Shown here: positions 19,811 through 32,758 of the stretch, piece by piece
Position numbering within the stretch: position 1 is the stretch's first letter
How the letters are laid out: every line of letters begins with the position of its first letter
Notes under the pieces: generated by a model
What the model was told of the DNA's origin: nothing
Database searches by the model: none
What the model saw: only the letters and a program-made list of their open reading frames with translations
IMG/VR virus record: IMGVR_UViG_3300042445_002627
Span: 1-32,758 of that record
Direction: 5' to 3' (one strand)
DNA from: a virus
DNA: 32,758 nucleotides
Program-made: the position numbers and the translations under genes

Positions 19811-19948
19811 ATGAATCAAAGCGCACGACCTCAACAGCCACCGACACCGGCTAAGAAACCCAATGAAACAGGATCCATCTCTGTTGAAGGACATATTCGT
19901 ATTTTTGACCCAAAAACCAAGGAAGTTATAGTGGAGAAGCGAGCATGA
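19811..19948 (+). CDS. 45-aa mini-protein resembling the N-terminus of the next gene
   Basis: This short gene starts with ATG 16 bp after the giant gene and ends in TGA that overlaps the next ATG (ATGA). The first 20 residues are Pro/Gln/Lys-rich and probably unstructured (QPPTPAKKPNE). The second half, ISVEGHIRIFDPKTKEVIVE, aligns without gaps to residues 9-28 of the following protein (AKIEGFVKIHNPVTGEVLVD): same length, with xEGxxxIxxPxTxEVxVxK shared. This supports a real gene and a duplicated beta-hairpin module. A Shine-Dalgarno is not evident. The role is unknown; it may be a small virion component that pairs with or substitutes for the N-terminal strand of its neighbour, or a remnant of a duplicated gene. 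Confidence 0.65.
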   Translation: MNQSARPQQPPTPAKKPNETGSISVEGHIRIFDPKTKEVIVEKRA

Positions 19949-20565
19949 TAATTCAGCCCGGACTAGCCAAAATTGAAGGTTTTGTAAAAATCCACAATCC
20001 AGTTACTGGTGAAGTACTGGTAGATAAAAAGAACGCAATACATTACGAAAATATATCCTATGCCATGGCGCAAACGCTGAGCAATCGCACAAGTGCTCAG
20101 GGTGGCGGCTGGATATATGAAATGGCATTTGGCAACGGTGGATCCAGTGTGGACCCCACTGGTATTATTACCTATTTGCCGCCCAACACAACAGGGCAAA
20201 ATGCCGCATTGTATAATGAAACTTATGCCAAAGTGGTCAATGACAACTCTGCTGCCGACACTGATACTGCCAACAACAAAATGACAGTGCTACACACATC
20301 TGGTAAAGTTTACACAGATATTTTAGTAACATGCCTATTGGACTACGGCGAACCAGCCGGGCAACAGGCATTCGATAACAGTACAAACTTCAACGGTGAG
20401 TACGTTTTTGACGAACTAGGGCTTAAAACATGGAACGGATCAGCAGATAATTTGCGTCTTATTACCCATGTAATATTTCATCCTGTGCAAAAGAGTTTGA
20501 ATAGACAGATACAGATTGATTACACAATTCGTATCCAGACACTAACAAACCTTAGTGCGGCATAA
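19945..20565 (+). CDS. Probable virion structural protein (206 aa)
   Basis: The ATG overlaps the stop of the mini-gene by 4 bp. The protein begins with a beta-hairpin-like segment (IEGFVKIHNPVTGEVLVDKK), then a helix (NISYAMAQTLSNRTSAQ), a Gly-rich turn, and a strand with MAFGNGGSSVDPTG that looks like a trimeric fibre or collar element. The rest is Asn/Thr/Tyr-rich with alternating strands and ends in a beta segment (RQIQIDYTIRIQTLTNL). There are no catalytic motifs, transmembrane segments or signal peptide. Its place between the giant protein and a tail-fibre-like protein suggests a baseplate or fibre-attachment role. I do not recognise a T4 counterpart; gp8 would be the positional guess but the length (206 against about 330) does not fit. 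Confidence 0.85.
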   Translation: MIIQPGLAKIEGFVKIHNPVTGEVLVDKKNAIHYENISYAMAQTLSNRTSAQGGGWIYEMAFGNGGSSVDPTGIITYLPPNTTGQNAALYNETYAKVVNDNSAADTDTANNKMTVLHTSGKVYTDILVTCLLDYGEPAGQQAFDNSTNFNGEYVFDELGLKTWNGSADNLRLITHVIFHPVQKSLNRQIQIDYTIRIQTLTNLSAA

Positions 20566-20585: not shown

Positions 20586-20593
20586 TATAAATA
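20586..20593 (+). promoter_or_regulatory. Late promoter, perfect TATAAATA
   Basis: An exact match to the T4 late -10 element, 22 bp ahead of the ATG at 20616. A good ribosome site (CGGAGTAAG, 20601-20609) lies between them, so the order promoter, leader, Shine-Dalgarno, start is complete. This is the best late promoter in the window. Confidence 0.75.
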
Positions 20594-20615: not shown

Positions 20616-21899
20616 ATGGCATATACAATCAATCTAACTGACGGTACCTTGTTTGCTACTATTGCAGATGGTACCATTAACACTTCTAGTAACATGGTAC
20701 TAGTTGGTAAAAATTACGCTGGCTACGGTGAATTTTTAGACGAAAACTTTATCCACCTGCTGGAGAATGCGTCTAATACAACTGCGCCAACTGCGCCGTT
20801 AACCGGTCAACTTTGGTGGGACAAAGCCAATGGATTGATGAAAGTTTACAGTGGCGCTGCGTTCAAAGTTATTTCAGGCGCAACTGCATCATCCACTGCT
20901 CCAACAGGCAATGTGACAGGTGATCTGTGGTATGACACTGTAAATGCACAGTTAAAAGTGTGGACAGGCACTACCTTCTTGTTGGTTGGTCCGCAGTTTA
21001 CAGCAGGCACAGGCACCACAGGTGCCATTGTTGCCACCATCACAGACAACACTTCTGTCAGTCACGTTGTGATTCAATTGTATGTTGAAAATTCAATTGT
21101 TGGCATTATCAGTAAAGATGCTGCGTTTACTCCACAAGTACCTCTCACAGGATTCACAACAGTACGCCCAGGCATTACATTAAGTACACTAGTAGGAGCA
21201 CAAGTTCCGTTGTTCCAGGGCACAGCAACAGATTCACAATTGCTTGACGGTATTGACTCAACTGGCTTCTTGTTAAGAAATACCAATCAAACTACCACAG
21301 GCACGTTTGGTGTGTTAAACAATACTGGACTTGCAGTTGGTGTAAATCAAGATTTCCGTATTGGTGTCACTGGAACAGCGGCAATACTTTATAATCAAAC
21401 CTCCAATGGTAACATTGCATTCAATGTCAACATTGCAGGCACACCAACACAGGTAATGTTGATCAATGGTGCAACTGGTATTGTGTCAGGTGCAAACGGC
21501 ATCTATGCCAACTATGCCGACGTTGCAGAACGCTTTGCCGCTGATGAAGTGTTGACAGCAGGAACAGTGGTTGAACTAGGCGGCGCCAACGAAATTACCA
21601 GAGTTGCTGACGAATTAAGCGAAAGTGTGTTTGGTGTCATAAGTACACGAGCAGCCTATTTAATGAATGCCGTTGCCGGAACTGACGAAACTCACCCCCC
21701 TGTTGCGATGACAGGTCGCGTTCCGGTTAACACCATCGGTGTTGTACGCAAAGGAGATAGGCTTGTATCTGCCGGCAACGGACTTGCTCGAGCCGCCCAA
21801 CCTGGCGAAGCCACAGCGTTTAATGTTATTGGCAGATCCTTGGACAACAAGGCATCTACTGAGCAAGGCACAGTAGAAGCAATTGTTAAAATTAATTGA
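20616..21899 (+). CDS. Tail-fibre-like protein with peptidase-G2-like C-terminal domain
   Basis: This 427-residue protein has a modular fibre layout. The N-terminus (about 1-85) carries YAGYGEFLDENFIHLLENAS and GQLWWDKANGLMKVYSGAAF, with a second copy of the latter at about 107-122 (GDLWYDTVNAQLKVWTG). Both are typical of marine myovirus fibre N-termini. A beta-rich, Thr/Asn-rich shaft follows (about 130-300). The C-terminus (about 305-427) reads YADVAERFAADEVLTAGTVV, VFGVIST, AAYLMN, PVAMTGRVPV and KGDRLVSAGNG, the pattern of peptidase-G2/intramolecular-chaperone-type ends of phage fibres, which help trimerise and may be cut off. Whether it self-cleaves is not visible. A perfect late promoter and ribosome site precede it. 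The next gene starts 11 bp after its stop. Confidence 0.87.
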   Translation: MAYTINLTDGTLFATIADGTINTSSNMVLVGKNYAGYGEFLDENFIHLLENASNTTAPTAPLTGQLWWDKANGLMKVYSGAAFKVISGATASSTAPTGNVTGDLWYDTVNAQLKVWTGTTFLLVGPQFTAGTGTTGAIVATITDNTSVSHVVIQLYVENSIVGIISKDAAFTPQVPLTGFTTVRPGITLSTLVGAQVPLFQGTATDSQLLDGIDSTGFLLRNTNQTTTGTFGVLNNTGLAVGVNQDFRIGVTGTAAILYNQTSNGNIAFNVNIAGTPTQVMLINGATGIVSGANGIYANYADVAERFAADEVLTAGTVVELGGANEITRVADELSESVFGVISTRAAYLMNAVAGTDETHPPVAMTGRVPVNTIGVVRKGDRLVSAGNGLARAAQPGEATAFNVIGRSLDNKASTEQGTVEAIVKIN

Positions 21900-21910
21900 T
21901 AGGATAAAAA

Positions 21911-22906
21911 ATGACATATACCGCAGGAAGCCTGATAGTCGCAACAGACTATAATGGATTTATTAGCACCAATGGAGCAAACGTAAACGGAATCTGGTCC
22001 ACCGGTGCCACCACATCTGGTTACGGCGAGACAGCATTGAGCACAGTGAGTGCAGCCGCAACAATCACTGCTTCGCAATGGGCCACATTGAATAGCAAAG
22101 TTTCAGCAATGGCCAGCCATCAAGGCACCACTATCACCAGCAGATCAAATCCTGTTGTTGGCGATACCATTGCAATTTTGGCCAACATGGCTACTGACAT
22201 CACAAACATTACTTCTGCACGTGGCAACGCCGCTGCCAGTGGCGCACAAACAACCAGTTTTACTGGCAGTACCAGTAAAACAACTGACACAGGTTCTGGA
22301 TCAACTCCGTGGACAATTACTTTTACACATACCATTACCTGGGCCAGCGCCAATGCTGCTCGTTACTTCTTCAACGCAGGTGGACGCATCAAGTGGGAAA
22401 CCAACAAAACATCAACAGGCAACTTGGCCGATGCAGAATGGAATGACTTGGCCAACACACTGGTCGGCGACATTTATATCACTGCCGGCGACGTATTAAG
22501 CCCACAGACAATTGCTGCCACCAGTTATACCGGTACTACCAAGGTAGGCGGAACTGGTACACCAGTTACATTGACTACCGCAACTGGCTGGTATAATTTA
22601 CTAACATCAGACACACTAATTTATAAACAATTTGCAGATACTGCTCCGTACACAGGACAGTTTATTGCAGTAAATGCCAAAACAGCAGGCACAGGCACGC
22701 AATTGGTATTGACCACAACCTGGGTTGATCCAGGCGGTTCTGGTACAGGTTCCAGTGACGTAATCACTGGTGGAACTGCCACAGCATCACCATTCACAAC
22801 TTTTGGAACAGCGCCTACCACATTGGTCACACTGTTTGTACCCAGCTCAACTTACCTAACCAGCGCAGCCTGGGGTACACCAACTATTGCAGCCGCAGTT
22901 GCATAA
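21911..22906 (+). CDS. Virion structural protein, fibre or baseplate-associated (331 aa)
   Basis: The start is well supported: AGGA at 21901-21904 lies 6 bp ahead of the ATG. The N-terminus TYTAGSLIVATDYNGFISTN, followed by GYGETALSTV, a helix with ASQWATLNSKV and the HQGTTITSR segment, is a layout I associate with marine T4-like virion proteins. The central part has WTITFTHTITWASANAARYF and FNAGGRIKWE, a beta-sandwich motif of minor tail or fibre proteins that often sits in a receptor-facing tip. The C-terminus is Gly/Thr-rich. There are no enzymatic motifs. It is the last gene before the terminator, so it closes the late structural unit. The exact particle location is inference. Confidence 0.82.
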   Translation: MTYTAGSLIVATDYNGFISTNGANVNGIWSTGATTSGYGETALSTVSAAATITASQWATLNSKVSAMASHQGTTITSRSNPVVGDTIAILANMATDITNITSARGNAAASGAQTTSFTGSTSKTTDTGSGSTPWTITFTHTITWASANAARYFFNAGGRIKWETNKTSTGNLADAEWNDLANTLVGDIYITAGDVLSPQTIAATSYTGTTKVGGTGTPVTLTTATGWYNLLTSDTLIYKQFADTAPYTGQFIAVNAKTAGTGTQLVLTTTWVDPGGSGTGSSDVITGGTATASPFTTFGTAPTTLVTLFVPSSTYLTSAAWGTPTIAAAVA

Positions 22907-22927: not shown

Positions 22928-22955
22928 AAAGGGCCTCCGGGCCCTTTACTTTTAT
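22928..22955 (+). terminator. Rho-independent terminator
   Basis: An 8-bp GC-rich stem (AAAGGGCC at 22928-22935 with GGCCCTTT at 22940-22947) and a 4-base loop are followed by a T-rich run (ACTTTTAT). It lies 22 bp after the stop of the last structural gene and is the only clear terminator in the window. Confidence 0.88.
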
Positions 22956-22973
22956 CTACACTTCCTGTATAAT
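22945..22973 (+). promoter_or_regulatory. Sigma70-like promoter of the downstream operon
   Basis: TTTACT (22945-22950) and a perfect TATAAT (22968-22973) are separated by 17 bp, with the first ATG of the operon at 22981. The -35 box overlaps the end of the terminator stem. With a start near 22980, the leader would be almost absent. This suggests host-polymerase (early or middle) expression rather than late expression. Confidence 0.6.
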
Positions 22974-22980
22974 AAACAAT

Positions 22981-23286
22981 ATGAATACTGAACAACTAAT
23001 TGCACACAGTCGTTCCCGTTTTGATCACGTGGCCGCCCGACGATTGCTAAAAGAAAAATATCAAGCCAAGCTGGTATTTGCACACGCCAGTGGCATGTGG
23101 TGTGCCGGCCCTGAACTCTTAAACATCTTGGCCACTGTGCCTCCAGGTGATGCAGTGCTGTTAGACTTGTATGAAACTCCGGTACTGGTTCGGCCTGAAG
23201 AACTACGTGGACTGGCCATGCAACGCTGGCAAGAGCAAATGAACGCTTGGTTGATCGAATACGAAGAACTTAACAAACAACGATGA
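22981..23286 (+). CDS. Conserved-looking small protein of unknown function (101 aa)
   Basis: This is the first gene of the region 2 operon. It starts with ATG only a few bases after a TATAAT box and has no visible Shine-Dalgarno, so it could be translated nearly leaderless. The protein is alpha/beta with a basic N-terminal helix (HSRSRFDHVAARRLLKEKY), a hydrophobic strand ending in FAHASGMWCAG, a second strand (DAVLLDLYETPVLVRPEEL) and a C-terminal helix (LRGLAMQRWQEQMNAWLIEY). There is a single Cys. I do not recognise the family. Its stop overlaps the next start as ATGA. Lying at the head of a glycosyltransferase/radical SAM operon, it could be an accessory or substrate protein, but nothing in the sequence decides this. 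Confidence 0.8.
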   Translation: MNTEQLIAHSRSRFDHVAARRLLKEKYQAKLVFAHASGMWCAGPELLNILATVPPGDAVLLDLYETPVLVRPEELRGLAMQRWQEQMNAWLIEYEELNKQR

Positions 23287-24080
23287 CCACTGGTGCATTG
23301 ATATTTGCATTTAACAACGAGCAAACTGATTATCTTTCTATGGCAGCATGGTCTGCCAAAAACATACACAGGCATCTTGGAATTCCTGTGGCTGTTGTAA
23401 CTGATTATGAAAACCCGCTAGGTGACTTTGATTATGTCGTAAACACTCAAGCACAAAGTGGTGGTCAACGTTATTTTTCAGATTATGATACCAATGTAAC
23501 TTGGCATAACACCAATCGTATGGATGCGTACAAATTAAGCCCCTGGGATCAAACGCTAGTACTTGATGCCGATTATGTCATTGCCAGTGATCAACTGCGT
23601 ACTGTGTTAAACAGCCGTCAAGATTTCATGTGCTATCGCCGGGCCTGGGATGTAACAGGATTACAAACATTTGAAGATTTAAACTACTTTGGCAATCATC
23701 GTATGCCCATGTGGTGGGCCACCGTGATGATGTTCCGTCGGAGCACAGCCGCAGAATTACTGTTTGATTCAATGCAAATGATTCGGGACAACTGGACACA
23801 CTACAGGAACCTGTATAAGAATTCCAATCCTACATATAGAAATGACCATGCACTCAGTATTGCGTTAAATACTTTAAATGGACACACACTACAAGTTGAT
23901 GGAATTCCAGGCACACTGGCCAGCATTACGCCAGAACATCGATTGACTCAACTTGATATAGATTCATATAGAGTAGACTTTTCGACACCAGATAAAAAAG
24001 CACGATGGATCACCTTGACTCAAGATTTTCATGCCATGGGAAAACAACAATTAGGAGCAATAGTTGCCAATCCTCTCTGA
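23283..24080 (+). CDS. GT-A-type glycosyltransferase candidate
   Basis: This 265-residue protein opens with a Rossmann-type strand (GALIFAFNNEQTDYLSMAAW) and continues with a second strand (IPVAVVTDYENP). It carries a D-A-D motif (residues 95-97) in TLVLDADYVIASD, the typical metal- and nucleotide-sugar-binding DxD of GT-A enzymes such as GT8. A later acceptor-side segment (FGNHRMPMWWATVMMFRRS) resembles the part of GT8-like folds that places the acceptor. A downstream Asp (NDHALSIALN) and His residues are in suitable places for a second metal ligand. No membrane segment is present. It would transfer a sugar to a protein, lipid or glycan; donor and acceptor cannot be told. ATGA overlap with the preceding gene, and a 17-bp overlap with the next, show one transcript. 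Confidence 0.75.
   Translation: MTTGALIFAFNNEQTDYLSMAAWSAKNIHRHLGIPVAVVTDYENPLGDFDYVVNTQAQSGGQRYFSDYDTNVTWHNTNRMDAYKLSPWDQTLVLDADYVIASDQLRTVLNSRQDFMCYRRAWDVTGLQTFEDLNYFGNHRMPMWWATVMMFRRSTAAELLFDSMQMIRDNWTHYRNLYKNSNPTYRNDHALSIALNTLNGHTLQVDGIPGTLASITPEHRLTQLDIDSYRVDFSTPDKKARWITLTQDFHAMGKQQLGAIVANPL
24053..24057 (+). promoter_or_regulatory. Shine-Dalgarno AGGAG that decides a TTG start
   Basis: AGGAG lies 6 bp before TTG at 24064, inside the 3' end of the preceding gene. An in-frame TAG at 24061 directly precedes the TTG, so no earlier start is possible. Confidence 0.8.
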
Positions 24081-24837
24081 ACGCGGATATTTGATTCCAG
24101 CCGTAAACACAGACACAGTCAGCTATACTGACTGCGCAGAACAGCTGGCTATGAGCATACGTCAATGGCATCCTAACGCTAACATAGCCATATTAACCAA
24201 TGACAGGTGTGACTGGTCATTGTTTACTCATGTGATTGAGTTGCCATATGGCGACCAAGGTGGATATGCCAATGATTGGCAGGTGTTTCGTGCCAGCCCT
24301 TACAGACAAACAATCAAACTAGAAGCAGACATGATTGCTGCCAGCTCTATCGATCATTGGTGGACCATGTTTGAGCATCGTGATGTTGTGATCAGTCAAG
24401 GCTGTAGAGACTTTTATGATCAGCCGGCTGCCAGTAGATACTATCGTCGACTGTTTGACGACAACTGCCTGCCCGATGTATACAACGCAATAACCTACTG
24501 GCGTGTGAGCAAAACAGCACAGGATTTTTTTAATCTGGTAAAGAAAATCTTTTCAAACTGGAGTTCCTACAAGACTTTGTTAAAGTTTCCAGAAGAAGTT
24601 CCCAGTACAGATGTGGTGTATGCCATGGCCGCACAGATCATTGGTCCAGAACTGGTCACACTGCCCCCGGGCCTTGGACCAACCATTGTACACATGAAAC
24701 AGCACATGATTGCCACACACACTGACGATTGGACCGAAGAACTAGTATGGGAAAATACTGATCCAGGACTAAGAATCAACACAGTGGCACAATGGGGACT
24801 TGTGCATTATCATAATAAAGATTGGAGATTGCTTTGA
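24064..24837 (+). CDS. Second GT-A-like protein, with E-x-D in place of D-x-D
   Basis: This 257-residue protein has a start fixed at TTG by the in-frame stop just before it and by AGGAG 6 bp upstream. The N-terminus (RGYLIPAVNTDTVSYTDCAE) and the strand NANIAILTNDRCDW have the GT-A nucleotide-binding shape. The metal-motif position reads IKLEADMIA, with E87-A88-D89. The C-terminal part has LPPGLGPTIVHMKQHM, where the His-containing strand often supplies the last metal ligand, and ends in GLVHYHNKDWRLL. It resembles the preceding gene in layout, and the two are probably old paralogues. A first acidic residue Glu is a conservative change, so it may be active with altered metal use or be a partner subunit. 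It overlaps the next gene by 4 bp (TTGA). Confidence 0.72.
   Translation: MPILSERGYLIPAVNTDTVSYTDCAEQLAMSIRQWHPNANIAILTNDRCDWSLFTHVIELPYGDQGGYANDWQVFRASPYRQTIKLEADMIAASSIDHWWTMFEHRDVVISQGCRDFYDQPAASRYYRRLFDDNCLPDVYNAITYWRVSKTAQDFFNLVKKIFSNWSSYKTLLKFPEEVPSTDVVYAMAAQIIGPELVTLPPGLGPTIVHMKQHMIATHTDDWTEELVWENTDPGLRINTVAQWGLVHYHNKDWRLL
24824..24827 (+). promoter_or_regulatory. Shine-Dalgarno GGAG for the TTG-initiated gene at 24834
   Basis: GGAG is 6 bp ahead of TTG 24834. An upstream in-frame TTG at 24822 has no such site and would overlap it, so 24834 is preferred. Confidence 0.7.
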
Positions 24838-25136
24838 GTAAAGAAGAAGATAAATTTAAAAAAAGTAAACGTCTATTAAAAGATGAAAATGCAGTGGCCC
24901 GACAAGTTAAGATTGCTAAAGCACACGGCATGACCAACAAAGACAAAGCAGTAAAAGAACCACACCGATTGGCCAAACATCATGTGATGGACTGTGGTAA
25001 TCCACAGTGTCCATTGTGCGGTAATCCTCGCAGAACACACAAAGACACACTGACAGCACAGGAAAAACGACTTTTCCAAGATGTTGACAAAACAACAGAC
25101 CGACACTCAAACGGTATTCCGCCTGCAGATGAATGA
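24834..25136 (+). CDS. Small basic protein with probable zinc-binding cluster (100 aa)
   Basis: The start is TTG at 24834 with GGAG 6 bp upstream; it overlaps the previous stop (TTGA). The N-terminal half is a highly charged helix (SKEEDKFKKSKRLLKDENAV, then ARQVKIAKAH). The second half holds HRLAKHH followed by MDCGNPQCPLCGNPRR, with H44, H49, H50, C54, C59 and C62, a C-x4-C-x2-C cluster with nearby His that can bind one zinc ion. Similar short KHHxMxCGNPxCxxCGNPR proteins occur in marine T4-like phages and some bacteria without a known function. The C-terminal tail is polar (TAQEKRLFQDVDKTTDRHSN). Being inside an enzyme operon, it may be a regulator or metal-handling helper, but that is open. 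It overlaps the next gene by 8 bp. Confidence 0.75.
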   Translation: MSKEEDKFKKSKRLLKDENAVARQVKIAKAHGMTNKDKAVKEPHRLAKHHVMDCGNPQCPLCGNPRRTHKDTLTAQEKRLFQDVDKTTDRHSNGIPPADE

Positions 25137-25476
25137 AACAACTGAAAATTTCTGGCTGGCACTGGCAGAGCCTGTGCCAGAACCTGCGCCTATTTTTTTT
25201 AGGTTGTACTACAATGAGCGTGGCGAGCCAGTATCTTACAGCATGGACGATTTGCCAGGTAATTATATAGAGATTGATGCAGAAACATATCAACGCAGTA
25301 GGTTCAATGTTCGAGTTGTTGACGGCAAAATAGTGCCTGTTATACATAAAAGACCTACAAGTAAATTGAAACCCAGCAACACAGGAACTACTTGCGCACC
25401 CGACAATATTTCTGTTGTTGTTGCAGAAGATCAACCACATATCAAATGGAGTTTAAAATCAAATGAATCAAATTGA
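25129..25476 (+). CDS. Hypothetical protein with beta-hairpin core (115 aa)
   Basis: I take ATG 25129 over an upstream in-frame ATG at 25081. The former overlaps the preceding stop by 8 bp, as is usual in this operon; the latter would overlap by 56 bp. The body reads FWLALAEPVPEPAPIFFRLY, then YNERGEPVSYSMDDLPG and NYIEIDAETYQRSRFNVRVV, a compact beta-hairpin fold I have seen in unnamed phage proteins. The C-terminal third is Lys/Thr/Ser-rich with one Cys. A run of eight Ts (25193-25200) lies in the coding sequence. Function is not recognised. Its small size and polar tail leave open a peptide-substrate role for the nearby radical SAM enzymes, without direct evidence. Confidence 0.72.
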   Translation: MNETTENFWLALAEPVPEPAPIFFRLYYNERGEPVSYSMDDLPGNYIEIDAETYQRSRFNVRVVDGKIVPVIHKRPTSKLKPSNTGTTCAPDNISVVVAEDQPHIKWSLKSNESN

Positions 25477-26389
25477 TGTAGCAGACCTAGACTGCATCTA
25501 CTTAACATACGACGAACCACAGAAGGAAGAATTCTGGGTTCGAATTCGCAACATGGTGCCTTGGGCCAAACGTGTTGACGGAGTCAAAGGGTCAGATGCC
25601 GCACACAAAGCTGCCGCAGCCGCAAGTGAAACAGAACGCTTTATCCTGATCGATGGCGACAACATGCCGTATCCAGAATTTTTTAATCAGACATTGACAT
25701 TTCCCACTGTTGATTATGAACGGGCTGTGTTCCGTTGGAGAGCATGTAACAACATCAACGGCTTGATGTACGGTAATGGTGGCATGAGTTCGTGGACACG
25801 CACATTTGTCAACGAAATGAAAACACACGAGAACACAGATGGCACAGCCGCTACTGAAGTAGAGTTTTGTTTTGACCCTTTGTATTGGGCCATGCACGAC
25901 TGCTATAGTACAACATATCCCAATGGTTCGGCGTTCCATGCATGGCGTGCCGGCTTCCGTGAAGGTGTCAAGATGTGTCTAAACAAAGGTGTTCGGCCTA
26001 CTGTGGCAGAATTTAAAGAACGTGTACATCAACGCAACCTAGACAACTTGACTGTGTGGCACAACGTAGGTCGTGATGCTGAACACGGAGTATGGGCAAT
26101 TGCTGGCGCACGTATGGGCACGTACATGACCATGTTGACCAACTGGGATCACAAACAAGTGCAATGGTTTGATTCGTTAAATGAACTGTGGGACACAGTC
26201 AAAGACACTGAGCCAGAATTGCTATTAGGCCGTGTGGCCGAGGAACTAAGCACACAGCTAGACTTGCCAATGGTCTGGTACGAGGAAGAAGCCAGCAAGT
26301 TCTTCAAACATCATTATCGCAGTGGCTGGCACAATCAAGGCGTTATGACACGTGAGATCGATGTGATCAGACAGCAAGAAGGCTGGTAA
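25463..26389 (+). CDS. GT-A-like protein with D-G-D motif (308 aa)
   Basis: The ATG lies 14 bp inside the preceding gene. The protein begins with a short strand (LDCIYLTYDEP), a helix, then WAKRVDGVKGSDAAHKAAAA and the strand RFILIDGDNMPYPEF. That D64-G65-D66, after a strand and before a loop, is where GT-A glycosyltransferases bind the metal-sugar nucleotide. Further motifs are FRWRACNNINGLMYGNGGM and FHAWRAGFREGVKMCLNKG, with several His and Trp residues in GRDAEHGVWAIAGARMG. The C-terminal third (about 235-308) is mixed helix with KFFKHHYRSGWH. Some marine phage relatives are annotated only as hypothetical. Enzyme type is likely glycosyltransferase or nucleotide-sugar-binding, but its actual reaction is unknown. 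The stop overlaps the next start (TAATG), and AAGAAGG at 26376-26382 primes that start. Confidence 0.68.
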   Translation: MNQIDVADLDCIYLTYDEPQKEEFWVRIRNMVPWAKRVDGVKGSDAAHKAAAAASETERFILIDGDNMPYPEFFNQTLTFPTVDYERAVFRWRACNNINGLMYGNGGMSSWTRTFVNEMKTHENTDGTAATEVEFCFDPLYWAMHDCYSTTYPNGSAFHAWRAGFREGVKMCLNKGVRPTVAEFKERVHQRNLDNLTVWHNVGRDAEHGVWAIAGARMGTYMTMLTNWDHKQVQWFDSLNELWDTVKDTEPELLLGRVAEELSTQLDLPMVWYEEEASKFFKHHYRSGWHNQGVMTREIDVIRQQEGW

Positions 26390-27774
26390 TGAGTAAAGGT
26401 GATCAAAGCCGTTTTATGAGTTCTGCTGAGCAGATGCAACAGGAACTGGGTCCAGCATTATGTTTAGCAAAATGGAAACAGGTTAGCTTTCACTTGCCCA
26501 CAGGGCTTAATAACTCGTGCTACCACCCGCCGTTACATCAGATCACTGCAGATGATTTACAACGCACGGGTGGAATACACAACACTGAACACAAAAAACA
26601 ACAACGTATGATGATGATTCGCGGTGAAAAACCCACGGAGTGTCAGTATTGTTGGAATATGGAAAACTTGGACAAACTGAGTGATCGACACTATCGTTCT
26701 GGAGAAGCCTGGGCCGCTGTGGACTTTGAAAAAATTAAAAATAGCATAGGCAACGAAGATGATGTAGTGCCTAGCTATGTAGAAGTCAACTTCAATCACG
26801 CTTGTAACCTAAAGTGCAGTTATTGTTCGCCACAGTTCAGTAGCAGTTGGGGAGAAGAAATGGAACGGCACGGTGCATTTCCTACCAGCAAACCACACAA
26901 CGCACCTGAGCACTTTGTGGGCAATCGTAAACCTATTCCCGTGCGAGAATCTAATCCCTATGTGGATGCATTTTGGGCGTGGTGGCCAACACTATATCCA
27001 GAACTGGTGCACTTTAGAATGACCGGTGGCGAGCCACTTATGGATCGAAACACTTACCGAGTATTTGATTATGTGTTGGCCAATCCCAATCCTAAACTGC
27101 ACTTAAATGTAACATCAAACTTTTCAGTAGACGATCAACTTTTTAAAAAGTATATATCTTATGTAAAGCGGTTGTGTACACCAGACATTGAACACTTTAT
27201 GCAATATGTTAGTTTAGACTCTGGCATAGCACCACAAGCAGAATACATACGTCACGGATTAGACTACAATCGCATGGCCAACAATGTTGAAGAATTCTTA
27301 CGCGATATTCCCAATCGCAATAGTCTGACGTTTATCATTACTATGAACAATTTAACTGTCACTGGTTTGCCTGCACTGTTAAAATGGATTTTGGAATTAA
27401 GAAAAACATATTCAACAACTTATCAACGTGTGTGGTTTGACACTCCTGTACTACGTGAACCTGCTTGGCAAAGTTTACAAATACTTCCAGAAAGTTATGC
27501 ACAACAATTAGAACATGCAAGAGATTTTATGTTAGCTAACATGGTGTCTGATGGCAATCTGTTACACGGATTCAAAGACTATGAAGTACAACGATTAGAA
27601 CGTGACATTGCATGGATGCGTGAAGGACAACACAAAGATAACTTGGTAGCGAAAGCAGATTTTCATCGTTTTTTTGCGGAACATGATCGTAGACGTGGCA
27701 CTGATTTCTCAACAGCTTTTCCAGAAATGCGGTCTTGGTGGGCAGAATGCGAGTATCATGCTCGGCAATTGTAA
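26389..27774 (+). CDS. Radical SAM enzyme with N-terminal Cys-rich domain, divergent type
   Basis: The radical SAM core carries C139-x3-C143-x2-C146 (HACNLKCSYC), which binds the SAM-cleaving [4Fe-4S] cluster, and the SAM-binding MTGGEP (211-216). N-terminal to the core is a cysteine domain reading C25-LAKW, a Gly turn, S-C44-Y-H-P-P-L-H and C85-x2-C88-W. This corresponds in place to the twitch/SPASM-like auxiliary cluster domain of phage radical SAM proteins, but the usual PCC is replaced by SCYHPPLH. A Trp-rich segment (YVDAFWAWWPTLYPEL) follows. The C-terminal part ends with FFAEHDRRRGTDFSTAF, found nearly unchanged in the paralogue at 28878. The start is ATG, with AAGAAGG 6 bp upstream. 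Known relatives act on peptides or sugars; the substrate here is unknown. Length 461. Confidence 0.9.
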   Translation: MSKGDQSRFMSSAEQMQQELGPALCLAKWKQVSFHLPTGLNNSCYHPPLHQITADDLQRTGGIHNTEHKKQQRMMMIRGEKPTECQYCWNMENLDKLSDRHYRSGEAWAAVDFEKIKNSIGNEDDVVPSYVEVNFNHACNLKCSYCSPQFSSSWGEEMERHGAFPTSKPHNAPEHFVGNRKPIPVRESNPYVDAFWAWWPTLYPELVHFRMTGGEPLMDRNTYRVFDYVLANPNPKLHLNVTSNFSVDDQLFKKYISYVKRLCTPDIEHFMQYVSLDSGIAPQAEYIRHGLDYNRMANNVEEFLRDIPNRNSLTFIITMNNLTVTGLPALLKWILELRKTYSTTYQRVWFDTPVLREPAWQSLQILPESYAQQLEHARDFMLANMVSDGNLLHGFKDYEVQRLERDIAWMREGQHKDNLVAKADFHRFFAEHDRRRGTDFSTAFPEMRSWWAECEYHARQL

Positions 27775-28897
27775 ATTTATTATTGACACAATGAGCGAGG
27801 TTTACAGTATAATGAAACCTTACTCGGATGATGAATTCTGGGATTTGGGCCTACACAAAACTCAGCAGAATTCAATCTATCTATTAGGCCGTAAGCAAAT
27901 GGTAGAACACACAGACCGTGTCAGAACAATGACACAGGATCCAACCATAACTGTAATATTTGGCAACAGCGCCGAAGGTTCTAAGACTATACTGGATCAA
28001 TTGCATGTGCTAAAGATTGAGGACCTGGTACTGTCAGGTCAACTATTGTTGCTGACTGGAGGCGAGATGGAATCTCGATATCCATATCTATTGCACGAAC
28101 ATTTTATTACACACATCTTGGACTATGATGAAAACATTCAGGCACAACAACGTACTGATGAAATCTTTGCCAAACACAACAAACCCTACAAATTTTTATT
28201 TCTAAATGGACGAGCAAGATCACATAGAAAATATCTGCTTGAAAGATTTCGACAAATGAATCTGTTGGATCATGCACTTTGGACACTGTTAGATGGCCGT
28301 GGCGGTGGCAGCAGGCATTTTACACTAACAGAACACAGGCAAGATCTATTGGGAAAAACTGCATCTATTAAACACTTGCCTTCAGAATATGAATTTGAAT
28401 CATTCAAAGATAATAGTATTGTGCTCGACTACCCACACAAATTTGCCAAGAACGAACTGTTTGGCAGTAAATGGGGCGAAATTTATTTAGAACCTGCTCC
28501 GTATATTGACACCTACTTTAGTTTGGTAACTGAGACTGTGTTTGAATATCCTTATAGTTTTAGAACAGAAAAAATTGCCAAACCATTGGCCATGGGGCAT
28601 CCGTGGATCTGTGCCACCAGTGTGGGATTTTATCGAGATATACACAAGTTGGGATTTCAAACATTTGGACATGTGATTGATGAAAGTTTTGATTCTATTG
28701 ACAATCATCAAGATCGAATGGAAAGAATAGCAATGATAGTTAATGATTTATGTCAACAAGATCTTGCAAGTTTTCTAAATGAATGCTATAATGTATGTAA
28801 ATACAATCAACACCACCTTGCAGAATTGCGCACACAAACTCGTAAAGAGTTTCCTGACCGTTTCCAACAATTTATCAATGAACGATTTAGATTTTAA
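27758..28897 (+). CDS. Probable glycosyltransferase with GT10-like TEK motif (379 aa)
   Basis: The start is chosen at ATG 27758, which overlaps the previous gene by 17 bp as its neighbours do; an in-frame upstream start at 27674 would overlap by 101 bp, and ATGs at 27791 and 27812 are alternatives. The N-terminal half has strands such as PTITVIFGNSAEG and DLVLSGQLLLLTGGE, then PYKFLFLNGRARSHRKYLLE. The C-terminal half has FSLVTETVFEYPYSFRTEKI, AKPLAMGHPW and GFQTFGHVIDES. T270-E271-K272 followed by KPLAMGHP resembles the TEK...G donor-binding region of GT10 fucosyltransferases and related GT-B enzymes, where the sugar nucleotide is held. That match is by eye. It lies between two radical SAM genes, so its sugar step may precede or follow theirs. 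Confidence 0.72.
   Translation: MLGNCKFIIDTMSEVYSIMKPYSDDEFWDLGLHKTQQNSIYLLGRKQMVEHTDRVRTMTQDPTITVIFGNSAEGSKTILDQLHVLKIEDLVLSGQLLLLTGGEMESRYPYLLHEHFITHILDYDENIQAQQRTDEIFAKHNKPYKFLFLNGRARSHRKYLLERFRQMNLLDHALWTLLDGRGGGSRHFTLTEHRQDLLGKTASIKHLPSEYEFESFKDNSIVLDYPHKFAKNELFGSKWGEIYLEPAPYIDTYFSLVTETVFEYPYSFRTEKIAKPLAMGHPWICATSVGFYRDIHKLGFQTFGHVIDESFDSIDNHQDRMERIAMIVNDLCQQDLASFLNECYNVCKYNQHHLAELRTQTRKEFPDRFQQFINERFRF
27783..27813 (+). promoter_or_regulatory. Possible internal sigma70 promoter with perfect boxes
   Basis: TTGACA (27783-27788) and TATAAT (27808-27813) are both exact consensus but 19 bp apart, two more than ideal. They sit at the boundary between the radical SAM gene and the TEK-motif gene. 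A start downstream would lie inside the latter and miss its ATG choices, so it would feed the genes from 28878 on. Confidence 0.35.
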
Positions 28898-30236
28898 ACA
28901 TGAAATTTTAGACACCAAGAGTGCAAGTTTTTGTGCGGCCAAATGGTACAATGCCACCATATGGTTGGGTTCGGGCCAAACTACCAGTTGCCATCATCCG
29001 CCAGCACACGCAATTGATCTGGCCGCGTTGGCCGCTAATCCTTCTGCGCTACACAATACTGCAAAGAAAAAAGATGATCGTCGGTTAATGATAGAAGGAA
29101 AACGTCCCACAGGTTGTGAATACTGCTGGAAGATCGAAGACATGGGCAAAGACGCAGTGTCAGACCGTGTATACAAAAGTAAAATTTATCCTATAGAGGC
29201 ATTGAATGAAGCACACCAAACCCCACACACAGAAGATGTCAATCTTCGCACACTTGAAATTGCGTTCGATCGCACTTGCCAATTTGCTTGTAGCTATTGT
29301 AACCCTGCTTTCAGTAGCACATGGGTCAATGATATCAAGCGAAGCGGACCTTATGTCGGCCTGGTGTCTGATGGGCGTAACCACTTTACTCATGCTCACG
29401 CTAGCAGTCAACTATACCGGCTTGGTGAAACTAATCCCTATGTTGAAGCGTTTTTTAAATGGTGGGAAACTGACCTTCACCAAACACTCCAAGAACTGAG
29501 AATCACCGGCGGCGAACCGCTAATGAGTGCCGAGACATGGAAATTGATTGACTGGTTTAAAAACAATCCCGGTAGATCGACCACCCGGTTAGCAATTAAT
29601 TCTAATCTTGGTGCAGATGTTGACGTGGATAGATTAATTGAAAGCACTCAAGGATTGGATGTGGAAATTTACACATCCATGGAAGCTGTTGGCGCTGCCG
29701 CTGAATATATTCGAGATGGACTAGATTATCCTGCTTGGGAAAAAAATGTAGTTAAATTACTAGACAGTCATGTGGGTGCAGTACACATAATGGCCACCAT
29801 TAATGCATTGTGCTTGACAACGTTGCCAATGCTTCTGCATTACGTAGTACAACTTAAATCAAAGTATGGTCGTGAACGTGTTAACTTTACATTAAATATA
29901 TTGAGATTTCCCAGTTTTCAAAGTCCACTGGTATTGCCCCGGGCATTGCTTACACGTCACATGCTTGACTTATCTAATTTCCTACAGCGATGGAAAGCGG
30001 TTCCTGACATACTGCACGAACACGAGATTAATCACCTACAACGATTAATTGATTATTTAGATGTAGTAAAAACTCCGCATTCAGACGCATTTGATATGCC
30101 TAAGTTACACAATGATTTTAAGCAGTTTTACACACAGTACGATCAACGTCGCGGAAAAAGTTTTAAAGATACATTTAAAGACAGTTATTCGTTAGACGTA
30201 ACATTATCAACATGGTATGACTCAATACAAATATAA
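28878..30236 (+). CDS. Radical SAM enzyme with N-terminal Cys-rich domain, divergent type (second copy)
   Basis: The start is ATG 28878, overlapping the previous gene by 20 bp; an earlier in-frame ATG at 28779 would overlap by 119 bp and adds a poorly conserved segment. The 452-residue protein matches the one at 26389 in order: C19-AAKW, G-S-G-Q-T-T-S-C38-H-H-P-P-A-H, C80-E-Y-C83-W, the core C134-x3-C138-x2-C141 (CQFACSYC), then ITGGEPLM (209-216). Near the end, FYTQYDQRRGKSFKDTF parallels HDRRRGTDFSTAF of the first copy. The two are ancient paralogues with the same SC[YH]HPPxH signature. Function: radical SAM chemistry with probable second cluster; substrate unknown. It overlaps the next gene by 20 bp. 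Confidence 0.9.
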   Translation: MNDLDFKHEILDTKSASFCAAKWYNATIWLGSGQTTSCHHPPAHAIDLAALAANPSALHNTAKKKDDRRLMIEGKRPTGCEYCWKIEDMGKDAVSDRVYKSKIYPIEALNEAHQTPHTEDVNLRTLEIAFDRTCQFACSYCNPAFSSTWVNDIKRSGPYVGLVSDGRNHFTHAHASSQLYRLGETNPYVEAFFKWWETDLHQTLQELRITGGEPLMSAETWKLIDWFKNNPGRSTTRLAINSNLGADVDVDRLIESTQGLDVEIYTSMEAVGAAAEYIRDGLDYPAWEKNVVKLLDSHVGAVHIMATINALCLTTLPMLLHYVVQLKSKYGRERVNFTLNILRFPSFQSPLVLPRALLTRHMLDLSNFLQRWKAVPDILHEHEINHLQRLIDYLDVVKTPHSDAFDMPKLHNDFKQFYTQYDQRRGKSFKDTFKDSYSLDVTLSTWYDSIQI

Positions 30237-31500
30237 TTCAACAGATTTAGTACGTCCAACAGAACTTTCAGAACGTGAAGAATTTTTATTAAAAGATTCC
30301 AAAACATTTTGCATCTACCCTTGGATACACTTACACGCATATCCAACAGGCGAAGCATATCCTTGCTGTCATGCCGAAATGGGTGTGGGCCAAATAGGCA
30401 ACTGCAGATCAAACACACTGGCAGAAATTTGGAACAGCTCAGAACAAAAACAACTCAGAGTTGACATGCTGACCGAAACACCTAATCCTACCTGTGGCCG
30501 TTGTTACGAACAGGAAGAATCAGGATTTTTCAGTGGGCGTAAAAGTGCCAACAAGCACCACGGGCATCATGTTAATCGAGTAGATAATACTGATGAAACT
30601 GGGCAGGTTGATCAATTTGAAATGACCTATTGGGATCTGCGGTTTAGCAATCTGTGCAATTTAAGTTGCCGTAGTTGTGGGCATATCTTTAGTTCAAGTT
30701 GGTACAAAGATCAAACAGAATTAGCAGGACCTGCATGGGCAAGCCAGAATAAACCACTTAACTATGCTGGACGTTATGCCACTGACCTGTGGGAACAACT
30801 GATCGAGCATATTGATCACGTGGAGCAAATTTACTTTGCCGGCGGCGAGCCCTTGATGATGGAAGAGCACTACTTAATTCTAGAAGAACTAGAACGTCGT
30901 GGACGCTTTGATGTTAGACTGATATACAACACTAACTTTACACAGACACGCCTTAAAGACCGCACAGTGTTTGATTACTGGCGCAAGTTTGACAGTGTAG
31001 CGGTTGGTGCAAGCCTTGATGCGTCTGGTTCACGCGGTGAGTACATACGCAAGGGAACTGATTGGGCTGTGGTAGAATCTAATCGTCGACAAATGATGGA
31101 AATATGCCCTAGAGTAGACTTTTACATCAGTCCTACTCTCAGCATTATGAACGCATTACATCTGCCAGACTTCCATAGAGACTGGGTAGAGAAAGGCTTA
31201 TTAAAACCTCAGGATCTTAATGTGAACATACTACAAGACCCTGCATATTTGCGAATTGATATCGCACCTGTAGAATACAAACAAAGAATACAATCTAAGT
31301 ATGAGCAACACTTGGAATGGTTGCGTCCATTGGATCAGTTAAATCGCGCCACTGTGGGATTTGAAAGTGCTATTACATTTATGAACAGCACTGACAACAC
31401 ACATTTACTAGATACTTTCTGGCGCAAGACGCACGAGCTTGATAGCCTCAGACGAGAACATGTGCTCGATGTGCTACCAGAATTAAGAGCAATTAAATGA
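30217..31500 (+). CDS. Radical SAM enzyme, canonical N-terminal twitch-type domain
   Basis: This 427-residue protein shows the standard layout of phage twitch-domain radical SAM proteins. First come C32-x2-PWIHLHAYPTGEAYPCC (C50, C51), then EIWNSS, then C93-x2-C96 with YEQEESG, which together form the auxiliary-cluster domain. The core has CNLSCRSC with C147, C151 and C154, followed by FAGGEPLM with GGEP at 209-212. After it are NTNFTQ and a Ser/Asp strand (VAVGASLDASGSRGEYIRKG), which in the family helps bind SAM. Two extra His-rich residues (HHGHH, about 116-120) are visible. The start overlaps the preceding gene by 20 bp and the stop overlaps the next ATG (ATGA). Reaction and substrate are unknown; relatives with such clusters usually modify peptides or sugars. 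Confidence 0.92.
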   Translation: MTQYKYNSTDLVRPTELSEREEFLLKDSKTFCIYPWIHLHAYPTGEAYPCCHAEMGVGQIGNCRSNTLAEIWNSSEQKQLRVDMLTETPNPTCGRCYEQEESGFFSGRKSANKHHGHHVNRVDNTDETGQVDQFEMTYWDLRFSNLCNLSCRSCGHIFSSSWYKDQTELAGPAWASQNKPLNYAGRYATDLWEQLIEHIDHVEQIYFAGGEPLMMEEHYLILEELERRGRFDVRLIYNTNFTQTRLKDRTVFDYWRKFDSVAVGASLDASGSRGEYIRKGTDWAVVESNRRQMMEICPRVDFYISPTLSIMNALHLPDFHRDWVEKGLLKPQDLNVNILQDPAYLRIDIAPVEYKQRIQSKYEQHLEWLRPLDQLNRATVGFESAITFMNSTDNTHLLDTFWRKTHELDSLRREHVLDVLPELRAIK

Positions 31501-32078
31501 CCGGGTTAGCAATAGGATGCAGTCATACCGCGGGAGTAGGAGTTGCTCCACACGAATGCTATGTGTCAGTGTTGTCACGACAGATTGGATTACCGATAAT
31601 AAACTTATCTGAACCGGGTGGCAACTCGTTGCATATCCAAGAACGATTGGTAGATCACTTGCGATACAATCTTCCTGAGTTTGTGATACTGCAATGGCCA
31701 AACATATTCAGACGTACAACCTGGCTAAAAGGTTCTCCAGTCAAAGAAAATATACACAATGCAAGTCAAGTTTTTCATGTCATAATGAAAGCAGGTCCTG
31801 AAAATTTTACCAACCCTTGGCTAATGAATATAATAACATGCAACCGATTATGCAACCTTGCTGGAATACCAACAATAAACATTTTATTAGAAAGTTTAGA
31901 CAGTGATAGTTTAGAAATTCTTCAAAAGCAAGATATTGTTATGCATTGTGATGATAAAACACCAACTCGTACCTGGCTGTTCGACAGTGCAGGGTCTGAT
32001 AACTTGCACCACAGTGCTCGTTGTCATGCACAATGGGCGGAAAGATTAAAAGGATTATTAAATGAATATACCACATGA
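31497..32078 (+). CDS. SGNH/GDSL-like hydrolase (193 aa)
   Basis: The SGNH pattern is visible. Block I is LAIGCSHTAGVG with S9 as likely nucleophile. The Gly of block II is in NLSEPGGNSLHIQE, the Asn of block III is in ILQWPNIFRR, and D168-N-L-H-H172 near the C-terminus is the D-x2-H catalytic pair (H171). Such enzymes remove or transfer acyl groups, for example O-acetyl on glycans or amino-acid esters. The usual GDS is GCS here; the first Asp is not essential in all members. There is no signal peptide, so it works in the cytoplasm. It lies between two radical SAM genes, with ATGA overlap upstream and AAGAG 7 bp before the start. A glycan (de)acetylase-type step fits the operon but is inference. 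Confidence 0.75.
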   Translation: MTGLAIGCSHTAGVGVAPHECYVSVLSRQIGLPIINLSEPGGNSLHIQERLVDHLRYNLPEFVILQWPNIFRRTTWLKGSPVKENIHNASQVFHVIMKAGPENFTNPWLMNIITCNRLCNLAGIPTINILLESLDSDSLEILQKQDIVMHCDDKTPTRTWLFDSAGSDNLHHSARCHAQWAERLKGLLNEYTT

Positions 32079-32758
32079 CACTTTTTGCGTGTTACCCTGG
32101 ATCTCACTGGAAGCTAGTCCTGTTGGCACTGTACGACCATGCTGTTTGGCCATGGACGAAATCACTGACGATGCCGGTGACAAATACAAACTGGCCTCCA
32201 CTGGATTGATTGAAATACAAAACAGCAACTCAATGAAAACTCTGCGTGAAGACTTTCTTGCTGGCAAAAAGCCGCAAAACTGCCGGCGTTGCTGGAACGA
32301 AGAACGTGCAGGCCGTACAAGTAAACGTATGCACACACTAGACAGACTCAATCACATGATTGACACAGATGTTTCCTGGACCACGGATGCTATGCCATTG
32401 ATGTTCCTTGATCTTAAACTAGGCAATATTTGTAATTTAAAATGTCGCATTTGCGGTTCGTGGAGCAGTAGCCAGTTTGCCGCAGAAGAAATCAAATACA
32501 ATCGTGCAGAAGACACTCGTGGTAACTTTGCTTATCAAATGCTGAAGGACGGTGCCTGGCCCAGAGAAAGCGCAGAGTTCTGGACAGACCTAGACCAGCA
32601 CCTGGATAACATACGCTACATTGAGTTTACCGGCGGCGAACCATTTATGATTCGAGAGCATTTCCAACTGTTACAAAAACTAGTAGACACCGGTCGTGCC
32701 AGCCAAGTCGAAATACACTATAATACAAACGGTACACAGTATCCCGAAGAAGGCGAAG
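32062..32758 (+). CDS. Radical SAM enzyme, canonical twitch-type, cut by the window end
   Basis: ATG 32062 is inside the SGNH gene (17-bp overlap) with AGGA at 32051-32054, 7 bp upstream. The frame is open to the last base, so only the first 232 residues are seen. The N-terminal domain has C9-VLPWISLEASP, P-C27-C28, then C74-x2-C77-W-N-E-E. The core cluster is ICNLKCRIC with C124, C128 and C131, and the SAM motif is FTGGEPFM (GGE with E193). It is the same subtype as the enzyme at 30217, but carries an insertion after the second Cys pair (ITDDAGDKYKLASTG). Four such enzymes in tandem make this the most striking feature of the operon. Confidence 0.9.
   Translation, partial: MNIPHDTFCVLPWISLEASPVGTVRPCCLAMDEITDDAGDKYKLASTGLIEIQNSNSMKTLREDFLAGKKPQNCRRCWNEERAGRTSKRMHTLDRLNHMIDTDVSWTTDAMPLMFLDLKLGNICNLKCRICGSWSSSQFAAEEIKYNRAEDTRGNFAYQMLKDGAWPRESAEFWTDLDQHLDNIRYIEFTGGEPFMIREHFQLLQKLVDTGRASQVEIHYNTNGTQYPEEGE

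What the first reader, a model, noticed from the sequence alone, without database searches (positions are those of the whole stretch)
22981..32758. Twelve-gene phage operon joining four radical SAM enzymes, glycosyltransferase-like proteins and an SGNH hydrolase
All genes from 22981 overlap the next by 1 to 20 bases. They encode three GT-A-like proteins, a GT10-like protein, four radical SAM proteins with an extra N-terminal cysteine domain, an SGNH-like hydrolase and three small proteins. This looks like a self-contained pathway for making or modifying a sugar or peptide decoration, placed next to tail genes. Candidate roles are virion or receptor-binding-protein modification, host-surface change, or a secreted product. 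That is inference; gene content is direct.
Basis: partly seen in the sequence, partly recalled or inferred. Interest (0 to 1): 0.88.

Follow-up and report, generated by a model that had tools for sequence, protein, structure and literature searches.

The report
Phage sugar-tailoring operon beside tail genes
A large virus of bacteria carries, right behind its tail-fibre genes but under what looks like a separate switch, a set of sugar-transferring and radical-chemistry enzymes that probably build or alter an unusual sugar coat during infection; islands of this type are known, but this conserved enzyme set and its separate control appear to be new.

Summary
Twelve + strand ORFs run from 22981 into the contig end, overlapping by 1-20 nt once sensible starts are used. 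All four radical SAM proteins pass the curated NF033640 (N-terminal twitch) cut-off; g02/g03 are homologous and GT8-like (glycogenin) by joint profile; g06 is weakly GT-A-like; g08 is GT-B, closest to but not separable as GT10; g11 has SGNH-type residues.

Core order is conserved in 76 of 77 clusters (95% g06 identity) and in two distant contigs at 27-64% identity. But the window shows a truncated operon. Relatives continue with a carbamoyltransferase (19 of 19 contigs of 148 kb or more) facing an AGAT/StrB1-type amidinotransferase (17 of 19); in six contigs read further, aminotransferase and epimerase homologues follow. g04 and g11 are rare extras.

New result: a terminator and a sigma70-type near-leaderless promoter (71 of 87 distinct g01 upstreams) separate the operon from the tail genes, whereas the tail-fibre gene has a T4-type late promoter (92 of 94). 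The neighbours are probably not co-expressed.

Best reading: an early/middle, cytosolic carbohydrate-tailoring pathway, more likely changing the host envelope than decorating the virion. Acceptor, product and timing are unproven. New variant of the published 'host recognition cluster' island.

The parts
1083..1457 (+). gp25-like baseplate wedge
   Evidence: PF04965 27.5 bits, cut-off 27.2; phrog_43
1511..4945 (+). gp6-like baseplate wedge; places the phage near T4-like jumbo myoviruses
   Evidence: phrog_10646 E 1.2e-275; 71 phage records, listed ones about 34% identical and mostly of jumbo size
4945..19794 (+). giant 4949-aa ORF between baseplate and tail-fibre genes (probable tail protein, by position)
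19945..20565 (+). u4, conserved protein of unknown function
   Evidence: phrog_11259; 141 loci
20586..20593 (+). T4-type late promoter TATAAATA before u5
   Evidence: NATAAATA in 92 of 94 distinct u5 upstreams
20616..21899 (+). u5, tail-fibre-like structural protein with a C-terminal IMC/Peptidase_G2-like end
   Evidence: phrog_14394 virion structural; PF11962 18.3 bits, below the cut-off of 25
21911..22906 (+). u6, Ser/Thr-rich (31%) conserved neighbour of u5
   Evidence: no PHROG or Pfam match
22928..22947 (+). intrinsic terminator between tail genes and operon
   Evidence: terminator-like in 57 of 77 distinct u6-g01 spacers
22945..22973 (+). sigma70-type promoter TTTACT-17-TATAAT, -10 ending 7 nt before the g01 ATG
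22981..23286 (+). g01, conserved 101-aa protein, unknown
   Evidence: 140 loci, alignment A5
23283..24080 (+). g02, GT8-like glycosyltransferase (GT-A)
24064..24837 (+). g03, GT8-like glycosyltransferase (GT-A), paralogue of g02
   Evidence: phrog_1903 5.8e-7
24822..25136 (+). g04, small Cys-containing protein, dispensable (called in 11 of 98 clusters)
   Evidence: phrog_4499
25129..25476 (+). g05, small conserved protein (longest ORF starts 25081; conserved start about 25129)
25463..26389 (+). g06, highly conserved GT-A-like protein (IDGDN motif)
   Evidence: weak fold evidence
26389..27774 (+). g07, N-terminal-twitch radical SAM 1; a cassette insertion slot lies just before it
   Evidence: NF033640 303 bits
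27758..28897 (+). g08, GT-B glycosyltransferase, GT10-like
28878..30236 (+). g09, N-terminal-twitch radical SAM 2
   Evidence: NF033640 289 bits
30217..31500 (+). g10, N-terminal-twitch radical SAM 3
   Evidence: NF033640 403 bits, PF13186 SPASM 44.6 bits
31497..32078 (+). g11, SGNH-like protein, optional cassette (called in 6 of 98 clusters)
32062..32757 (+). g12, N-terminal-twitch radical SAM 4, cut by contig end
   Evidence: NF033640 225 bits

Best explanation
This is the 5' part of a carbohydrate-tailoring operon of T4-like jumbo phages. Cytosolic glycosyltransferases (two GT8-like, one probable GT-A, one GT10-like GT-B) assemble a short glycan. N-terminal-twitch radical SAM enzymes oxidise, epimerise or dehydrate sugar units. 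In relatives a NodU-type carbamoyltransferase near the 3' end adds a carbamoyl group; a convergent block adds amino and guanidino groups (aminotransferase, amidinotransferase) and helps make the activated sugar (epimerase). Interchangeable cassettes (SGNH, extra GT10-like, radical SAM, AMP ligase) change the final structure. The operon has its own sigma70-type promoter and is cut off from late tail transcription by a terminator, so its enzymes are most likely made before or apart from tail proteins. With no lipid-carrier or export genes found, it most likely alters precursors that the host's own machinery puts on the cell envelope, masking receptors against other phages. Shown: gene content, order, fold or family of most enzymes, promoter and terminator motifs, and the partner enzymes in relatives. 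Inferred: sugar substrate, chemistry of each radical SAM, timing, and the envelope as acceptor.
For: Families and folds. Partner enzymes in relatives: carbamoyltransferase PF16861 in 19 of 19 contigs of 148 kb or more, one each. Amidinotransferase homologue at least 64% identical, 0.03-4.7 kb from it on the opposite strand in 17 of 19, the query's own contig included (distances worked out by hand), similar to AGAT (3e-13) and StrB1 (8e-12). DegT 214.6 bits and Epimerase 149.4 bits (one contig), with homologues at the same place in 6 of 6 extended contigs. The twitch profile finds BtrN at 4e-4, weakly: no single stretch passed on its own. Separate control: 71 of 87 distinct g01 upstreams carry a sigma70 site with its -10 ending 5-7 nt before the first ATG (at most 3 in 60 shuffles) and 0 of 87 carry NATAAATA; u5 is the reverse, 92 of 94 with NATAAATA (at most 13 in shuffles) and 0 of 94 with a sigma70 site at that spacing. 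In the closest long relative the same promoter class precedes a DNA helicase and an endonuclease (2 of 8 proteins given; the other 6 unknown or unmatched), while the late class precedes tail, head and late-sigma genes (6 of 10 given). Highest 19-residue hydropathy among the twelve proteins is 1.67, so none looks membrane-bound.
Against: No expression, glycan or virion data. Tail adjacency is very old (L178 and L179), which is more simply explained if the acceptor is a tail protein. Early-made enzymes could still glycosylate tail fibres later. u6 is 31% Ser+Thr. PF02397, PF01943 and PF04932 are absent in 7 of 7 phage contigs over 317 kb (other families for these steps not tested, and contigs may be incomplete), so envelope delivery would have to borrow host machinery. 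16 of 87 g01 upstreams lack the promoter at that spacing, and 12 of 94 u5 upstreams have a sigma70-like site at some other spacing. g06 and g11 assignments are weak. Gene-distance correlations were low and uninformative.
Confidence: 0.47

Rival explanations
1. Virion decoration: the enzymes are made early, stay in the cytosol and glycosylate tail-fibre proteins u5/u6 (or the giant tail protein) before assembly, as a shield or to tune receptor binding.
For: u6 to g06 within six genes in 91 of 96 clusters; order kept in two distant contigs; operon proteins look soluble and the three lipid-linked export families tested are absent in 7 of 7 contigs; u6 31% Ser+Thr. Virion glycosylation is reported for mycobacteriophages (Freeman 2023, seen only as cited in PMC12619734).
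Against: Terminator plus a different promoter class between tail genes and operon. No acceptor site was sought.
Confidence: 0.3
2. Peptide (RiPP-like) modification: the radical SAM enzymes cross-link or epimerise small proteins g01, g04 or g05.
For: SPASM/twitch radical SAM enzymes often mature peptides (recalled); weak matches to peptide maturases; small proteins lie in the operon.
Against: No RiPP recognition (PqqD-like) domain, peptidase or transporter among the Pfam hits of the operon proteins; sugar enzymes dominate; g04 called in 11 of 98 clusters; the two distant contigs keep the g05 position but not a recognisable g05.
Confidence: 0.07
3. DNA or nucleotide hypermodification: the glycosyltransferases and tailoring enzymes decorate phage DNA.
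For: Promoter class shared with DNA-metabolism genes; the g08 fold ties with T4 beta-glucosyltransferase, Z 12.2 against 12.4.
Against: Location beside tail genes; GT8- and GT10-like families; no base-modifying partner was seen in the operon.
Confidence: 0.06

Closest known systems
Host recognition cluster (HRC) of pelagimyophages and cyanomyophages (PMC7029224; passages seen)
   Same: Variable island beside tail-fibre genes with several glycosyltransferases, GT8 the family most represented in those phages, and radical SAM cassettes that come and go; the authors suggest host O-chain modification.
   Different: Here the front part is strongly syntenic, the radical SAM enzymes are a conserved core rather than add-ons, and carbamoyl- and amidinotransferase partners recur.
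Radical SAM clusters of Campylobacter phages CP220/CPt10 (PMC2853527; passages seen)
   Same: 11 and 12 radical SAM proteins per genome, an exchangeable module, each cluster with a putative glycine amidinotransferase.
   Different: A word search of that paper for 'glycosyl' gave nothing; whether those proteins belong to NF033640 was not tested.
Marine T4-like genome TARA_ERS488813_N000010 with 12 radical SAM genes (PMC5332604; passages seen)
   Same: Many radical SAM genes in a T4-like environmental phage.
   Different: Discussed there in an Fe-S cluster context; no sugar pathway in the passages seen.
Aminoglycoside tailoring enzymes: BtrN, StrB1, NodU/TobZ-type carbamoyltransferase, StrS/DegT (pathway roles recalled; similarity)
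   Same: Twitch radical SAM, amidinotransferase, carbamoyltransferase and sugar aminotransferase families occur together.
   Different: The twitch is N-terminal here; similarity to BtrN and StrB1 is distant, and NodU scores far below its equivalog cut-off; no aminocyclitol synthase was looked for.

Membership tests
N_Twi_rSAM (NF033640) | score above the curated cut-off of 170 bits | tested here: met
   303, 289, 403, 225 bits, 4 of 4; 0 of 14 control genomes reach the cut-off
N_Twi_rSAM (NF033640) | radical SAM CxxxCxxC and N-terminal auxiliary-cluster cysteines | tested here: met
   4 of 4 proteins; weak profile match of positions 5-75 to BtrN
GT8 (glycogenin-like), g02/g03 | sequence-profile match to a GT8 enzyme | tested here: met
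   joint profile A11 to glycogenin 3.7e-5, profile positions 14-112 (residue alignment not viewed); single-family profiles A1 and A2 gave nothing
GT8 (glycogenin-like), g02/g03 | match to the curated Pfam glycosyltransferase families | tested here: not met
   0 Pfam families up to E 1 for both; so 'works like GT8', not filed as a member
GT10 fucosyltransferase, g08 | GT-B fold closest to GT10 | tested here: inconclusive
   Z 12.4 for 2nzx, tied with BGT and GtfC; no Foldseek hit at E 0.001 or better in PDB
GT10 fucosyltransferase, g08 | Pfam/NCBIfam family match | tested here: not met
   no match up to E 1
GT-A fold, g06 | confident fold match | tested here: inconclusive
   pLDDT 71; listed rows almost all GT-A or nucleotidyltransferase but Z 7.2 or less
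SGNH hydrolase, g11 | Ser, Gly, Asn, His blocks | tested here: inconclusive
   invariant GCSH, GG, QWPN, DNxHH in 6 of 6 (block names recalled); TesA E 0.1
Host recognition cluster island | variable region with glycosyltransferases beside tail fibres | tested here: met
Host recognition cluster island | lies between VrlC and neck gene gp14 | not tested
   the phage lineage differs
RiPP pathway | RiPP recognition element, precursor peptide, protease or exporter | tested here: inconclusive
   none in the Pfam and NCBIfam scans of the operon proteins
Viperin-type antiviral radical SAM | score above the NF038283 cut-off of 180 | tested here: not met
   12-24 bits; PADLOC pVip at most 27.1 bits, 10 of the 12 proteins given

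The most novel reading that the evidence does not exclude
Jumbo phages carry a modular pathway for an aminoglycoside-like sugar decoration (amino, guanidino and carbamoyl groups, shaped by several N-terminal-twitch radical SAM enzymes), switched on early from a leaderless promoter, with cassettes that diversify it between phage species: a phage-encoded receptor-masking or antigenic coat whose chemistry I found described for no phage.
Probability: 0.22. Interest if true: 0.82.

Novelty: new variant of a known kind. Interest (0 to 1): 0.58.

Why it matters
It turns a vague 'auxiliary genes near tail fibres' island into a defined, recurrent enzyme set with a testable expression class. If the product is confirmed, it would give the N-terminal-twitch radical SAM family a substrate class, for which my ten paper searches turned up none, and show how large phages chemically remodel host or virion surfaces.

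Tried and rejected
Direct homology to named families for g01, g02, g03, g06, g08 and g11: no Pfam or NCBIfam match at the stated limits, apart from sub-threshold hits. PDB sequence searches with single-family profiles A1-A4 and A8 gave only chance-like rows. Isolate phages: no tblastn relatives of g07, g03, g06 or u6 at the limits used; g10 finds 3 records at 22-24%. PF02274 did not detect the amidinotransferase (0 of 19 over cut-off); phmmer to PDB and a protein search did. Cellular genomes: the scan with g10 found none; with g06 only 4 loci, two of which look like phage contigs filed under MAGs. Defence system: PADLOC only weak viperin matches. Moraphages (PMC12619734; abstract and passages seen) were considered as the same lineage and set aside because that paper places them outside the T4 group. 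Gene-distance correlations (66 of 98 clusters) were low (0.61 or less) and confounded by length differences, so not used.

Against my reading: two of 19 long contigs (G010, G012) lack the close amidinotransferase copy. Three of 123 loci break core order because their g08-family ORF lies elsewhere, in L041 on the reverse strand. Only 8 of 9 leaderless-class and 10 of 23 late-class genes were given to PHROGs; 4 of 8 and 3 of 10 had no match. The late class also precedes a heptose-kinase-like gene. C-terminal DxxH is missing in some accessory SGNH-like families, e.g. 0 of 7 in one. One PF01943 hit in record G020 lies on a contig (C10) other than those with the radical SAM genes (C57, C77).

Absence from print rests on ten searches of an open-access library only. 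Papers were seen as listings, abstracts or passages, none in full.
Full report
What is there. The window is an entire 32758-base virus record. Upstream genes are gp25-like and gp6-like baseplate wedges, a 4949-aa ORF and u4-u5-u6. The gp6-like protein is about 34% identical to those of jumbo myoviruses. The closest long relative is a 346,856-base contig, so the window is probably a piece of a jumbo phage. Habitat and host were not given by any tool. The twelve ORFs from 22981 are real, tightly overlapped and truncated at the 3' end.

What the proteins are. The four radical SAM proteins all exceed the NF033640 cut-off, with intact CxxxCxxC and N-terminal Cys in the order Cx18C...CxxC; a profile of the wider family weakly matches BtrN. 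g02 and g03 are paralogues, GT8-like by joint profile. g08 models well (pLDDT 92) and is GT-B, with a GT10 fucosyltransferase first but tied with other GT-B enzymes. g06 models poorly (pLDDT 71) and resembles GT-A and nucleotidyltransferase folds. g11 carries SGNH-type invariant residues. g01, g04 and g05 have no assigned function.

Conservation. Two scans of IMG/VR gave 407 relatives of g07 and 104 of g03, best 80 kept each. The two scans hit many of the same contigs, so I collapsed loci at 95% g06 nucleotide identity: 98 clusters besides the window, whose own g06 is at most 89.6% identical to any. Of 77 clusters holding u6, g02, g03, g05, g06, g07, g08 and g09, 76 have them in that order; u6 and g06 lie within six genes in 91 of 96; g01 was called in 87 of 98, g04 in 11, g11 in 6. 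Between g06 and g07, 51 of 151 loci (not collapsed) have nothing and 100 have 1-7 extra ORFs: GT10-like-motif, SGNH-like, DegT, AMP ligase, sulfotransferase-like (recalled) and radical SAM types. Slot content differs in 0 of 102 pairs at 95% g06 identity or more (many being the same contig fetched twice), 18 of 33 at 90-95% and 226 of 287 at 80-90%. The window and L004 are 92-94% identical on both sides of a 3.2-kb insertion (four genes in L004), and the window alone of the two has g11. Two contigs filed under cellular MAGs keep the front part of the order at 27-64% identity: L178 (u5-u6-g01-g02-g03-x-g06-g07) and L179 (u4-u5...u6-g01-g02-g03-x-g06).

Beyond the window. Seven contigs over 317 kb have 12-21 NF033640 matches each, 6-17 of them over the cut-off (my count), in the operon and elsewhere, so four is not a special number. 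A carbamoyltransferase occurs once in each of the 19 contigs of 148 kb or more. A close amidinotransferase homologue lies 0.03-4.7 kb from it on the opposite strand in 17 of 19, and is related to AGAT, StrB1, HsvA and SxtG. In six contigs read further, GT10-like-motif, DegT and epimerase homologues follow (Pfam tested in one). A seawater single-cell virus contig (7955 bp) carries an amidinotransferase homologue, two GxSx-type (SGNH-like, by eye) ORFs, a carbamoyltransferase 49% identical, and an NF033640-type radical SAM protein cut by the contig end (145 bits, below the cut-off). Campylobacter phages also pair radical SAM clusters with a putative glycine amidinotransferase (PMC2853527).

Control of expression. 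A terminator lies between u6 and g01, terminator-like in 57 of 77 distinct spacers. A sigma70-type site with its -10 ending 5-7 nt before the first ATG is present in 71 of 87 distinct g01 upstreams (at most 3 in 60 shuffles; 56 of 87 with the longest-ORF start), while u5 carries NATAAATA in 92 of 94 (at most 13 in shuffles); NATAAATA is in 0 of 87 g01 upstreams and the closely spaced sigma70 site in 0 of 94 u5 upstreams. In contig G001, among 203 gene upstreams, such near-leaderless sites number 9 against 1.0 expected (at most 5 in 200 shuffles), and late-type sites 23 against 3.0 (at most 7). The late class contains tail, head and gp55-like late-sigma genes; the near-leaderless class contains a helicase and an endonuclease, and no structural hit among the 8 given. 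Hence the decoration operon is probably early or middle, not co-transcribed with the tail fibre. That timing is inference from motifs.

Mechanism. Soluble glycosyltransferases, radical SAM, amination, amidination and carbamoylation point to an unusual sugar. Absence of PF02397, PF01943 and PF04932 in 7 of 7 phage contigs (the same searches are positive in 9, 13 and 9 of 14 control genomes) suggests either host-assisted envelope delivery or direct modification of cytosolic proteins; other families for these steps were not tested. Promoter class tips me to the host envelope; adjacency keeps virion decoration close behind.

Known or new. Glycosyltransferase- and radical-SAM-bearing islands beside tail fibres are published for pelagimyophages (PMC7029224), and high radical SAM counts for other phages (PMC2853527, PMC5332604). 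New here, within the searches listed: the conserved N-terminal-twitch core, its carbamoyl- and amidinotransferase partners, and its separate promoter class.

Noticed in passing
window 4945-19794: A single 4949-aa open reading frame between baseplate and tail-fibre genes, with only 4 Cys; probable giant tail protein.
   Followed up: partly
L178 (PBPT01000016.1) and L179 (NZDU01000049.1): Contigs filed as Neomarinimicrobiota and Pacearchaeota MAG sequences carry this phage tail and operon region; they look like phage contigs binned by mistake.
   Followed up: partly
G001 contig, e.g. L193:10436, L196:9387, L183:11952: Genome-wide class of sigma70-like promoters whose -10 ends about 6 nt before the start codon, implying leaderless or nearly leaderless mRNAs in this phage lineage.
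   Followed up: partly
L176:1923-3167 and similar ORFs in L175: Tryptophan-halogenase-family flavoprotein (PF04820, 306 bits in L176) close to the carbamoyltransferase; two look-alike ORFs in L175 by eye.
   Followed up: partly
L172-L177, family c40: An ORF near the amidinotransferase block varies from 543 to 2047 aa among six relatives, suggesting repeat expansion.
   Followed up: no
L180:9995-11605, L181:2426-4066: Distant g06-like proteins of about 540 aa in Bacteriovoracales-labelled MAGs, each followed by a similar-looking unnamed protein.
   Followed up: no
L164 (Vibrio phage K566): A 255-kb isolate phage with radical SAM genes matching NF033640 (2 of 4 tested over the cut-off), annotated only as radical SAM domain proteins; a possible laboratory model.
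   Followed up: partly
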